DNA of 25,077 nt, taken from a virus. This document shows, in pieces, positions 3,790 to 12,114 of the stretch. The DNA lies in the IMG/VR virus record IMGVR_UViG_3300030101_000652, positions 1-25,077 of that record; one strand, written 5' to 3'. Made by a program: the position numbers and the translations under genes. Under the pieces are notes generated by a model. That model was not told the origin of the DNA. It saw only the letters and a list, made by a program, of their open reading frames with translations, and did not search any database. Within the stretch, counting starts at the first letter, position 1. Every line of letters starts with the position of its first letter.

Positions 3790-4098
3790 ATGAATAGTAA
3801 TAAACTAAAACAAATAAACAGAAAAACAGAGAGATTGTTAGTAGAGTGGCTTTCTATGATGGTATCTGAAGAAGAAGCTAAACAAATAAACACAAAGAAC
3901 ATTATGCAGTTTATGCCTACAGAGATACACGCTCCTCTCAACACTGGCGTTAGATGTGTACCTATGACTCCTAGATGGATAAAGAAGGAACTAAAGAAGC
4001 TGGTCAAAAAAGACAAAAGCTTTGATGTTGACTCTATAACATTAGGTGATTTAGAACAGATAGCAGAGAGACAAAGAGTGTTGCATGCCAGCACGTAA
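3790..4098 (+). CDS. Hypothetical small helical protein, 102 aa
   Basis: Not recognised. The protein is charged and predicted helical. It begins with a Lys/Arg-rich stretch (KLKQINRKTERL), has a Pro-containing middle (PMTPRWIKKELKKLVKKDK) and ends in an acidic/basic helix. There are no cysteines forming a motif and no membrane segment. The ATG at 3790 is preceded by AAAAGG at about the right spacing. In-frame ATGs at 3763 and 3730 would lengthen it but overlap the exonuclease gene. The end overlaps the endonuclease I start by 14 bases. Location between an exonuclease and a junction-resolving endonuclease suggests an accessory role in DNA metabolism, but that is only context. Confidence 0.72.
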   Translation: MNSNKLKQINRKTERLLVEWLSMMVSEEEAKQINTKNIMQFMPTEIHAPLNTGVRCVPMTPRWIKKELKKLVKKDKSFDVDSITLGDLEQIAERQRVLHAST

Positions 4099-4570
4099 GC
4101 CAAGAGTAAAAAGACCTAACCTCAGACATCTTGGATATGATTCGATATGGGAAGCTAACCTACACGAATCTATTTTAAAAGATTGGAAACATCATACTGA
4201 GTCTGTATCTTATATAACTCATCATACATACAAGCCTGACTTCATAAGAAAGATCAAAGGTAAGAAGATATTGCTAGAATCTAAAGGTAGATTCTGGGAT
4301 CATGCTGAATACAGTAAGTATCTTTGGGTTCAAAAAGCTTTACCTAAAAACACTGAATTGGTATTCTTATTTGCTAACCCTGCTTCTCCCATGCCCGGAG
4401 CTAAAAGGAGAAAGGATGGAACTAAACGTACTCATGCTGAATGGGCAGAGACAAATGGATTTAGATGGTATAGTGAAGATACTATGCCAGATAAATGGAT
4501 AGATGTATCAGCTAAAGATACAGAAGATTTTAAGAAACGTAATGACAAAACTAACAAGGAGTTTGAGTAG
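4085..4570 (+). CDS. Endonuclease I / Holliday junction resolvase, T7 gp3-like
   Basis: A 161-residue homologue of T7 endonuclease I, which resolves branched DNA and helps break down host DNA. Matching landmarks, in order: an acidic residue in SIWEANLHES (E23, the equivalent of T7 E20), HHTYKPDF (D52, T7 D55), ILLESKGRFW (E65-x-K67, T7 E65/K67), a basic loop after LFANPASP, and the HAEWAETNGF/DKWI tail that parallels YGEWCEKHG and AEWI in T7. The last 20 residues are an added charged tail. Overlaps on both sides (14 bases upstream, 1 base downstream) place it firmly in the replication operon. Function is assigned with high confidence from the aligned catalytic residues. Confidence 0.92.
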   Translation: MPARKPRVKRPNLRHLGYDSIWEANLHESILKDWKHHTESVSYITHHTYKPDFIRKIKGKKILLESKGRFWDHAEYSKYLWVQKALPKNTELVFLFANPASPMPGAKRRKDGTKRTHAEWAETNGFRWYSEDTMPDKWIDVSAKDTEDFKKRNDKTNKEFE

Positions 4571-10353: not shown

Positions 10354-10544
10354 TAGGTATAACCACCACCAGCAGCTTTATATTGTCTTGCAAGCATCTG
10401 AGCTTTTCTAGCACTCCACTGACCGGGTTTTCCACCCTTGGAGCCAGCCTTGATTTTATTAAACAATCTTTTACGCATAGTAGGCTTAGTATAATTACCA
10501 GCTTCATTTACTCTAGATTTAGCTTTTTTCTTTTTTGCAGCCAT
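10353..10544 (-). CDS. Conserved small basic phage protein (KPGQWSARKAQ motif), 63 aa
   Basis: 18 of 63 residues are Lys or Arg by hand count. The landmarks are KSRVNEAGNYTKP, TMRKRLFNKIKAG, the glycine-rich GSKGGKPGQWSARKAQ and the end YKAAGGGY. This combination recurs in phage genomes as I remember them, without known function (unverified). It overlaps its neighbours by one base on each side, so it is translated together with the genes around it. The size, charge and glycine loops resemble small nucleic-acid-binding or ribosomal-type proteins, but no homology to those is claimed. Confidence 0.82.
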   Translation of the reverse strand: MAAKKKKAKSRVNEAGNYTKPTMRKRLFNKIKAGSKGGKPGQWSARKAQMLARQYKAAGGGYT

Positions 10545-10807
10545 TATTCATCCTCTTCTTTTTTAATCATCGGATCTCTAAACAAATATTTACTACCAGC
10601 TTCATTAGCAGGTATTACTCTCACTTCACAATAAGCTTTGAAGTATCTAGTCTTTTCTCTAACAAAGTTTTGTTTATGTACACTTTGATGTATTAACGCA
10701 TCTTTGTATTCTAAACAACTTGTAAGCTCTTGAAAGTAAAGTTCTAACCCAGTAGGTATATTAGTAGGAGAAAGTAAAACTAAAACAAAAATCATAACAG
10801 TGGTCAT
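10544..10807 (-). CDS. Hypothetical protein with hydrophobic N-terminus, 87 aa
   Basis: Not recognised. The first 14 residues (MTTVMIFVLVLLSP) are hydrophobic like a signal peptide or membrane anchor. They are followed by a mixed region with two cysteines (SCLEYKDA and AYCEVRVIP) and a charged tail (MIKKEEDE). The ATG at 10807 overlaps the stop of the upstream frame as ATGA. That coupling is the best proof that the startless frame upstream is really translated. Export could place it in the periplasm during lysis, since it follows the lysis cassette. Confidence 0.7.
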   Translation of the reverse strand: MTTVMIFVLVLLSPTNIPTGLELYFQELTSCLEYKDALIHQSVHKQNFVREKTRYFKAYCEVRVIPANEAGSKYLFRDPMIKKEEDE

Positions 10808-11220
10808 AATCTTCTCTTCTTAGTAATTGCTTGTCTTATCTCTGCTTTAGGAGCCACTAGTTCCCATGTCAACATTTCCACATCTATCTGATGTGCAGTT
10901 CCTAAAACTCTTGACATACTATTTCTTACATATATCTGTGCTCCATACCCACATTGTTGATGGTTATGCTGTAGCCAAGCTATAGCAACCTTATGTCTCT
11001 TAGCAGGAGGATTAACTAGTTGTAAATTAGTCCACTCTCTAAGATCACAAAATAAATTAGGTTGTTCAGGATTGTACTCTATTTGTTTAGAAGAGCCTGT
11101 ACTAGAGCTTGGATCTGTTGATTCGTTTGCTCCTGTATCTTCTCCTGTCTGCTCAAGGACTCCACAATCGCCTGTACCTTCTGTTCCGTCACAGCCACTG
11201 CCTGTCCATTCGCCTGAGCC
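10804..11220 (-). CDS. Startless -1 frame, likely frameshift extension of the membrane coiled-coil gene
   Basis: This frame is open from 11247 to its TGA at 10804 but has no ATG, GTG or TTG until an ATG at 10917 with no ribosome site. Its last 275 bases are not covered by any other gene. Entered at the slippery site 11220-11226, it adds 138 residues to the first 53 of the 11378 gene, giving 191 in total. The new part begins with a Gly/Ser/Thr-rich linker with two cysteines, then a folded-looking region (FCDLREWTNLQ, KVAIAWLQHN, CGYGAQIYVRN) and a basic end (ITKKRRL). The stop is coupled to the next gene as ATGA. A sequencing indel or a rare ATA start at the 11079 stop are the alternatives. 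Confidence 0.6.
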   Translation of the reverse strand, partial: GSGEWTGSGCDGTEGTGDCGVLEQTGEDTGANESTDPSSSTGSSKQIEYNPEQPNLFCDLREWTNLQLVNPPAKRHKVAIAWLQHNHQQCGYGAQIYVRNSMSRVLGTAHQIDVEMLTWELVAPKAEIRQAITKKRRL

Positions 11221-11378
11221 TTTTTTACAGCTTCCTCCGCTATAGCCTCAATCCTTTCACGATCATCACTAGCATGAGCCGTGTTAGCTTGTAAGACTCC
11301 CCAAGATACAGCGATAGTTAAACATCCTATGACCATTGGTAATGCCCATGTAGGGACTTTGATACTTCCTTCACTCAT
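11079..11378 (-). CDS. Membrane-anchored coiled-coil protein of the lysis cassette (possible i-spanin), 99 aa
   Basis: Residues about 10-28 (TWALPMVIGCLTIAVSWGV) form one membrane helix. The remaining 65 residues are a helical, Gln/Ala/Val-rich coiled coil (RIEAIAEEAVKKAQ through IQALVQALLNK) that would project into the periplasm. This N-in, coiled-coil-out layout after holin and endolysin resembles an inner-membrane spanin (Rz-like), but no family match is claimed. Its start lies one base after the holin stop with a good AAGAGGA site. A strong -1 frameshift signal at codons 51-53 predicts a second, 191-residue product sharing the same anchor. By hand count 35 of 60 bases are G+C at 11161-11220, richer than the AT-rich surroundings, as dual coding could cause. 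Confidence 0.75.
   Translation of the reverse strand: MSEGSIKVPTWALPMVIGCLTIAVSWGVLQANTAHASDDRERIEAIAEEAVKKAQANGQAVAVTEQKVQAIVESLSRQEKIQEQTNQQIQALVQALLNK
11220..11238 (-). promoter_or_regulatory. Candidate dnaX-type -1 ribosomal frameshift site
   Basis: On the - strand the heptamer A AAA AAG (11226-11220) is in the zero frame of the 99-residue gene (codons GTA AAA AAG). A Shine-Dalgarno-like GGAGGA (11238-11233) lies upstream, with 7 bases between GGAGG and the heptamer. This is the arrangement known from E. coli dnaX, where the internal ribosome site sits about 10 bases upstream. The -1 frame opens only 21 bases before the heptamer and stays open to 10804. I found no convincing strong hairpin just downstream, only weak stems. 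Confidence 0.62.
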
Positions 11379-11745: not shown

Positions 11746-12114
11746 CTAGTAACTCCAGATCCAAGGTCTTGGTCTACCTGCTGCATTCTCTATATCATCT
11801 AAATGTATAAATCTACCATCACCTTTTTGTGATATTCCAATGCCTTTAAATTTAAGCTCTAGTGCGCCCTCTATGACCCTGTAAGCCTCTTCTCCTCTTA
11901 CCCTTATGTCTACTGCCTTGCCACTACAATGCGCCCCCGGAGACTCCTTAGCAGCTTCTATGGGATGTTCTGAACAACGATAAGCACTATTGATAGGTAG
12001 AGGAAAACCCATGTCTTCTCTTAATTGATCTAGCTTCTGCATAAAATCATGATCCATCTCATATGATCCACAATGAGTACACTTCATTTCATCTTCTGTA
12101 AAATATTTATACAC
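11746..12114 (-). CDS. Endolysin, M15-type zinc peptidase
   Basis: A 122-residue protein of the Peptidase_M15_3 type that cuts peptide bonds in peptidoglycan cross-bridges. The zinc-binding residues are visible: H62 and D69 in GAHCSGKAVDIRV, and H104 in RFIHLD; the family motif SAYRC (R46) precedes them. An N-terminal CTHCGS pair of cysteines is probably structural. There is no signal peptide, so release depends on the neighbouring holin. The start is GTG 12114 with AAGGAG just upstream, lying inside the end of the giant virion gene (8-base overlap). T7 uses an unrelated amidase; here the lysis enzyme is a peptidase. Confidence 0.9.
   Translation of the reverse strand: MYKYFTEDEMKCTHCGSYEMDHDFMQKLDQLREDMGFPLPINSAYRCSEHPIEAAKESPGAHCSGKAVDIRVRGEEAYRVIEGALELKFKGIGISQKGDGRFIHLDDIENAAGRPRPWIWSY

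What the first reader, a model, noticed from the sequence alone, without database searches (positions are those of the whole stretch)
10804..11378. Candidate programmed -1 frameshift in the lysis cassette, dnaX-style
A perfect A AAA AAG heptamer (11226-11220, - strand, in the zero frame) follows GGAGGA. The -1 frame opens just upstream and runs 138 codons to 10804. Within that frame there is no ATG, GTG or TTG until codon 102, yet the stop is coupled to the next gene as ATGA, and 275 bases would otherwise be unexplained coding-looking DNA. The overlap is G+C-rich for this genome (35 of 60 at 11161-11220), as dual coding could produce. Two products would share one membrane anchor: a 99-residue coiled coil and a 191-residue form with a Gly/Ser linker and a new domain. 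I know of no described phage lysis gene with this design, although dnaX and tail-chaperone frameshifts are well known.
Basis: partly seen in the sequence, partly recalled or inferred. Interest (0 to 1): 0.86.

Follow-up and report, generated by a model that had tools for sequence, protein, structure and literature searches.

The report
Frameshift-made second form of phage membrane protein
A marine phage gene next to its lysis genes appears to make two proteins from one start, because some ribosomes slip back one base and swap the end of a membrane-anchored coil for a flexible linker plus a new small domain; over a hundred related phages keep the same trick, but nobody has yet measured it.

Summary
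In 116 distinct homologous loci (102, then 14 found afterwards) the downstream domain always lies in the -1 frame of the upstream membrane/coiled-coil ORF and never has an ATG, GTG or TTG before it. Of 115 that can be judged, 85 carry a canonical slippery heptamer (A AAA AAG, A AAA AAA, G GGA AAG or G GGA AAA) inside the overlap; the other 30 carry the shift-prone tetramer A_AAG there. In 27 relatives that lack the downstream domain, the same ORF has 2-9 stops in the -1 frame; one has a chance heptamer. The G GGA AAR members rule out a sequencing error or transcriptional slippage on an A-run as the general cause. Closely similar downstream domains sit behind different upstream modules, with the -1 phase kept each time. 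The domain is a small helical fold with two invariant cysteines and no known family; a stand-alone, exported relative occurs in other phages. Not supported: a conserved downstream RNA structure, extra synonymous suppression, or a Rz/Rz1-type spanin assignment. Function is inferred only: an inner-membrane-anchored periplasmic lysis or envelope accessory made in two forms.

The parts
11079..11378 (-). Zero-frame ORF (N module): 99 aa, N-terminal transmembrane segment then coiled-coil-like helix; the short product
   Evidence: homologues in 143 distinct loci
11286..11354 (-). Probable transmembrane segment of the N module (residues 9-31, PTWALPMVIGCLTIAVSWGVLQA), shared by both products
   Evidence: sequence; P9, W11, P14, A23, G27, A31 invariant; topology inferred
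11233..11238 (-). Shine-Dalgarno-like GGAGGA, 6 nt upstream of the heptamer; possible stimulator
   Evidence: anti-SD duplex -9.5 kcal/mol, among the strongest in the gene in this clade; not conserved in the other slip-site clades
11220..11226 (-). Slippery heptamer A AAA AAG, zero frame
11083..11219 (-). Dual-coded overlap: zero frame = C-terminal part of the coiled coil; -1 frame = about 46-residue Gly/Ser/Thr/Asp-rich linker
10804..11082 (-). C domain (92 aa plus stop) in the -1 frame: helical, Cys12 and Cys44 invariant, no ATG/GTG/TTG before it
   Evidence: 60 sequences; AlphaFold2, mean pLDDT 86.5
10804..11378 (-). Whole recoded gene; 191-aa frameshift product
10544..10807 (-). Next gene, 87 aa, start overlaps the C-domain stop (ATGA); small protein with hydrophobic N-terminus and Cys
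   Evidence: similar small ORF directly follows the N ORF in loci without the C domain such as L112
11380..11745 (-). Upstream small membrane protein, holin-like by position and hydrophobicity
   Evidence: phrog_2524, E 6e-36, unknown function; no Pfam holin match
11746..12114 (-). M15-type endolysin
   Evidence: PF08291, E 2.5e-12; phrog_894 endolysin, E 4e-27

Best explanation
One phage gene makes two inner-membrane proteins from one start codon. Most ribosomes read the zero frame and make a 99-aa protein: a transmembrane segment plus a periplasmic coiled coil. A minority slip -1 at A AAA AAG, which may be helped by the upstream GGAGGA, and make a 191-aa protein. It has the same anchor, but the coil is cut short and replaced by a flexible hydrophilic linker of about 46 residues and a small helical domain with two invariant cysteines, probably in the periplasm. 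The domain has no start or export signal of its own here, so the frameshift is its way to the membrane and sets its low share. By position (endolysin, membrane protein, this gene, small secreted-type protein) I think it most likely acts as a lysis or envelope accessory. Shown by sequence: frame relation, slip sites, modularity, natural controls. Inferred: that slippage happens and at what rate, topology, disulfide, function. The confidence given is for the frameshift; the functional step alone deserves about 0.5.
For: Phase and no start: 102 distinct loci, all -1, none with ATG/GTG/TTG before the domain; 14 of 14 later loci agree. Slip sites: 76 of 101 readable loci have A AAA AAG, A AAA AAA, G GGA AAG or G GGA AAA in the overlap; the other 25 have A_AAG. 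These match the motif set seen in bacterial frameshifting: A_AAG is the most shift-prone tetramer in E. coli, and these heptamers are among those used by IS elements (PMC4066793). Natural control: relatives without the domain (12 + 15) have 2-9 stops in the -1 frame, and Lys-Lys is mostly written AAG AAA/AAG AAG. Open frame not by chance. Modularity: slip classes change at least 30 times on the C-domain tree, closely similar domains behind different N modules. Stand-alone exported relative.
Against: No expression data. No conserved 3' stimulatory structure. Synonymous suppression in the overlap is weak and equals the control. About a quarter of the loci have only the A_AAG tetramer, weaker than heptamers in E. 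coli. The strong SD-like element is limited to the window's clade. The host is unknown, so decoding by its tRNAs is untested. The C-domain tree has few resolved forks, so the number of exchanges is approximate. Function is the weakest step: no Pfam, PHROG or PDB match for the domain.
Confidence: 0.9

Rival explanations
1. The downstream part is a separate overlapped gene, translated by re-initiation or from a non-standard start codon near the zero-frame stop.
For: Overlapped gene pairs are common in phage lysis cassettes (PMC6139136). Distant relatives of the domain do have their own GTG start. In 20 of 101 loci an ATA codon stands at the domain's first residue.
Against: No ATG/GTG/TTG before the domain in 116 loci. 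Near-cognate codons are not conserved in place, and only 5 in all have an anti-SD match of -7 kcal/mol or better upstream. It does not explain the slippery sites, nor why the -1 frame is open back to the slip site and not only to the domain. The product would have no export signal although both its cysteines are invariant.
Confidence: 0.05
2. Sequencing or assembly error, or RNA polymerase slippage, at the A6 run; the gene is really one frame or is corrected in the mRNA.
For: A6-A7 runs are error-prone in reads and can cause transcriptional slippage.
Against: The same arrangement is found in many separate contigs, and 23 distinct loci use G GGA AAG/A, which is not a homopolymer. The zero-frame ORF itself is conserved and has its own stop in every complete case.
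Confidence: 0.02
3. The pair is a decayed gene: the C domain is a passenger that is no longer expressed.
For: Linker sequence is poorly conserved and synonymous suppression is not above control.
Against: The C domain is strongly conserved at protein level (8 invariant columns in 60 sequences), the -1 frame is kept free of stops (0 of 1329 at-risk junctions), and the slip site changes type while staying slippery.
Confidence: 0.03
4. Functional rival: the N module is an i-spanin and the frameshift form is a one-gene substitute for the o-spanin, bridging to the outer membrane.
For: Single N-terminal TM plus periplasmic coil; weak Rz-like hits (phrog_1152, E 0.026 for the window and 0.0073 for L105; phrog_739, 0.0057 for L003). 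Position beside the endolysin. No phrog_739 match elsewhere in the window's record.
Against: No lipobox in the -1 frame of any of 101 loci. A relative (L003) carries a separate, clear Rz-like spanin three genes downstream (phrog_739, E 1.8e-9). A holin profile scores better than spanin profiles on L003's N module. Coiled coils give spurious profile hits.
Confidence: 0.2
5. Functional rival: the tethered domain is a regulator of lysis timing or superinfection exclusion, comparable in architecture to small exported antiholins (membrane anchor plus disulfide-bonded helical domain).
For: Helical domain with two invariant Cys. The stand-alone relative has a hydrophobic N-terminus and lies between membrane genes and a lysozyme in MW202825. 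A low, fixed share set by frameshifting suits a regulator. The antiholin comparison is from memory.
Against: No fold match to any known antiholin among PDB chains (no functional lead). No direct evidence.
Confidence: 0.35

Closest known systems
E. coli dnaX (tau/gamma) -1 frameshift
   Same: A AAA AAG heptamer in the zero frame with an upstream Shine-Dalgarno-like element; two products sharing an N-terminus
   Different: In dnaX the frameshift product is the short one and a downstream stem-loop stimulates; here the frameshift product is the long one with a new domain, and no conserved stem-loop was found
Phage tail-assembly chaperones (lambda G/GT and relatives)
   Same: Phage gene, -1 frameshift onto an extra C-terminal domain; G GGA AAG occurs in some homologues here (the lambda site is recalled from memory)
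   Different: Membrane/envelope protein beside the endolysin gene, not a tail chaperone; the zero-frame coil is truncated and replaced, and a stand-alone relative of the added domain exists elsewhere
IS3/IS1 transposase frameshifts (PMC4066793)
   Same: Same set of motifs, including the A_AAG tetramer and A AAA AAG/A, G GGA AAG/A heptamers
   Different: Not a transposase; no conserved pseudoknot or hairpin found
Two-component spanins Rz/Rz1 (PMC6139136)
   Same: Small TM-plus-coil protein in a lysis region with coding information in an overlapping frame
   Different: No lipobox, no separate start; the second frame is attached to the first by frameshifting
Stand-alone relative in MW202825 (UOF82387.1) and L167-L169
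   Same: Homologous C domain (HMM 50 bits), same two-cysteine pattern, in a lysis region
   Different: Own GTG start and own hydrophobic export segment; no N module

Membership tests
Bacterial/phage programmed -1 ribosomal frameshift genes | Slippery X XXY YYZ heptamer or Z_ZZN tetramer in the zero frame inside the overlap | tested here: met
   76 of 101 heptamer, 25 A_AAG; 9 heptamer, 5 A_AAG
Bacterial/phage programmed -1 ribosomal frameshift genes | Conserved open -1 frame leading to a conserved domain without its own start | tested here: met
Bacterial/phage programmed -1 ribosomal frameshift genes | Stimulatory element: upstream SD-like sequence or downstream RNA structure (common, not obligatory) | tested here: inconclusive
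   SD-like strong in the window's clade only; no conserved downstream structure
Bacterial/phage programmed -1 ribosomal frameshift genes | Measured production of both proteins | not testable with these tools
   needs reporter or proteomics
Two-component spanin (Rz/Rz1) | i-spanin: N-terminal TM plus periplasmic helical domain | tested here: inconclusive
   architecture fits, profile hits weak and mixed with holin hits
Two-component spanin (Rz/Rz1) | o-spanin: lipoprotein with lipobox and its own start in the overlapping frame | tested here: not met
   no lipobox in 101 loci; no start before the domain
Unimolecular spanin | Conserved N-terminal lipobox and C-terminal TM | tested here: not met
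   VIGC occurs in the window's N module, but the Cys is absent in 14 of the 15 aligned N modules; the product ends in a polar helix
Phage tail-assembly chaperone G/GT | Lies before the tape-measure gene and has tail-chaperone homology | tested here: not met
   lies beside the M15 endolysin; no tail-chaperone family match for either half

The most novel reading that the evidence does not exclude
A previously undescribed use of recoding: a phage lysis/envelope gene in which programmed -1 frameshifting is the only route that exports and tethers a cysteine-containing periplasmic domain, so that the slip rate sets the ratio of bare anchor to domain-bearing anchor and thereby tunes lysis or superinfection; and the slip site acts as an exchangeable joint across which different anchor modules are swapped while the -1 phase is kept.
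Probability: 0.4. Interest if true: 0.85.

Novelty: new variant of a known kind. Interest (0 to 1): 0.74.

Why it matters
Programmed frameshifting in tailed phages is known mainly from tail chaperones and a few structural genes. A conserved frameshift in a membrane protein of the lysis region would widen its known use, would show that gene callers miss a whole conserved domain family because it has no start codon, and would give a set of natural variants (four heptamers, one tetramer, and domain-less controls) for testing what makes a bacterial slip site work. None of the three libraries searched has a family for the C domain.

Tried and rejected
Tail-chaperone reading: rejected (position, no family match). 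Overlapped o-spanin with its own start: rejected for this gene (no start, no lipobox). Read error or transcriptional slippage at the A6: rejected as a general cause by the G GGA AAR members. Synonymous suppression: uninformative, since the ratio of 0.75-0.93 is about that of the no-domain control, 0.8. Downstream RNA stimulator: none conserved in three clade alignments; window z about -1.5. Absence of ATG/GTG/TTG inside the overlap as independent evidence: dropped, because it follows from the zero-frame protein. Searches without useful result: isolate phages for the N module, PDB by sequence and fold for the C domain (best VIA Z 5.7 to unrelated helical proteins), megablast of the window against phages. 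Paper searches for frameshifting combined with spanin, lysis cassette, holin or slippery heptamer found no description of this gene; subscription journals are not covered.

Full report
WHAT IS THERE. On the minus strand, 11378-11079 encodes a 99-aa protein with an N-terminal transmembrane segment and a coiled-coil-like remainder. A AAA AAG lies in its zero frame at 11226-11220, and GGAGGA lies 6 nt upstream. The -1 frame runs open from the slip for 138 codons to 10804, and the first ATG/GTG/TTG is the 102nd codon. The joined product is 191 aa. Every count in the finding was reproduced. The surroundings are those of a T7-like podovirus record of 26.5 kb with DNA polymerase, ribonucleotide reductase, an internal virion protein, an M15 endolysin and a small membrane protein directly upstream.

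RELATIVES. Scans of IMG/VR with the two halves separately and of genome contigs gave loci that contain 114 distinct N ORFs. Of these, 102 have the C domain, always in the -1 frame, and none has ATG/GTG/TTG before it. Of the 101 that are complete at the slip region, 76 carry a canonical heptamer in the overlap: A AAA AAG (43), A AAA AAA (10), G GGA AAG (13) and G GGA AAA (10). The other 25 carry the tetramer A_AAG, in forms such as GTG GTA AAG, GCG GCA AAG and GTA AAG AAA. In the A6 members the codon before AAA always ends in A, and in the G3A3 members the codon before GGA is always ACG, as each heptamer requires. E. coli experiments rank A_AAG as the most shift-prone tetramer, and these heptamers are among those used by IS elements (PMC4066793).

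NATURAL CONTROL. Twelve N ORFs lack the C domain and abut the next gene. Each has 2-7 stops in the -1 frame of its last 46 codons. Most write the conserved Lys-Lys as AAG AAA or AAG AAG; one (L137) has an A AAA AAG a few codons earlier. A last scan served as an out-of-sample check: 14 of 14 new domain-bearing ORFs are in the -1 phase with a slip motif (9 heptamer, 5 A_AAG), and 15 of 15 new domain-less ORFs have 3-9 stops and no heptamer there.

CHANCE. With synonymous codons redrawn from local usage, the overlap stays open in the -1 frame with median probability 0.022 per locus (window 0.012). Codon junctions that would create a -1 stop: 0 of 1329 in the overlap, 31% upstream in the same genes, 37% in the domain-less relatives. 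The loci share ancestry, so these probabilities should not be multiplied over all of them. But slip-site classes change at least 30 times on the C-domain tree, and closely similar C domains follow different N modules. The tree has few resolved forks, so this number is approximate; with starred branches only, most of the single classes still need several changes each.

WHICH MECHANISM. G GGA AAR is no homopolymer, so a read error or polymerase slippage cannot be the general cause. A separate start is not supported. Ribosomal -1 slippage remains. A stimulator is likely in the window's clade: GGAGGA pairs with the anti-SD at -9.5 kcal/mol, among the strongest sites in the gene. It is weaker or absent in other clades, and no conserved 3' structure was found. 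Synonymous suppression does not exceed the control, which fits a linker that must only stay open and hydrophilic. Its composition is 84% GSTNDEQKRP, partly inherited from the zero-frame codons.

THE C DOMAIN. Sixty members align with Cys12, Pro26, Arg29, Cys44, Asn54, Gly61, Thr62 and Ala63 invariant. The AlphaFold2 model is helical, mean pLDDT 86.5, pTM 0.75. There is no Pfam, PHROG or PDB family match. The nearest folds are three uncharacterised phage proteins of 90-103 aa. A homologous stand-alone protein with its own GTG start and hydrophobic N-terminus occurs in MW202825 and three IMG/VR contigs, near a lysozyme and a membrane protein. I infer that the domain works in the periplasm, and that in this lineage the frameshift replaces its own export signal.

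FUNCTION. The N module gives only weak, mixed spanin and holin profile hits. One relative has a separate, clear Rz-like spanin, so a spanin assignment is not secure; no lipobox exists in the -1 frame. I favour an inner-membrane-anchored lysis or envelope accessory whose domain-bearing form is a regulated minority. This step is inference.

NOVELTY. Isolate phages lack the N module, and the paper searches found no description. The mechanism is known; the gene, the domain and the swapping across a slip site appear new. The frameshift itself is predicted, not measured.

Noticed in passing
L005 3899-4207; L167-L169 around 3965-4273: In phages with the stand-alone C domain, the upstream membrane gene ends ATG GCA AAG TGA G, an A_AAG tetramer directly before its stop, and the -1 frame there continues into the C-domain ORF. 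A low-level fusion is conceivable here too.
   Followed up: no
L003 5923-6366 (also L170): A separate Rz-like spanin (phrog_739, E 1.8e-9) lies three genes downstream of the recoded gene, so this phage has two TM-plus-coil proteins in the lysis region.
   Followed up: partly
C-domain tree, loci L034/L079/L041 and L016/L060/L061: Closely similar C domains follow different N modules with different slip sites, suggesting recombination near the frameshift joint.
   Followed up: partly
L147 and L148 (JAAXIF010000089.1, JAAXIF010000071.1): Two different members of the family lie on contigs binned to one MAG labelled Sphingobacteriales (SW22112_bin_1); either binned viral contigs or a hint at the host.
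   Followed up: no
window 10544-10807 and downstream ORFs of L003, L094, L128, L112: A small protein (76-87 aa, hydrophobic N-terminus, Cys) often follows the recoded gene and stays in place in some loci where the C domain is absent; no family known.
   Followed up: no
L113 5276-5518 and L091/L149-L154: Very diverged C domains (about 21-30% identity to the window's) that keep both Cys and the -1 relation; L113 with A AAA AAA, L091-L093 with GTA AAG AAA, L151-L154 with A AAA AAG.
   Followed up: partly
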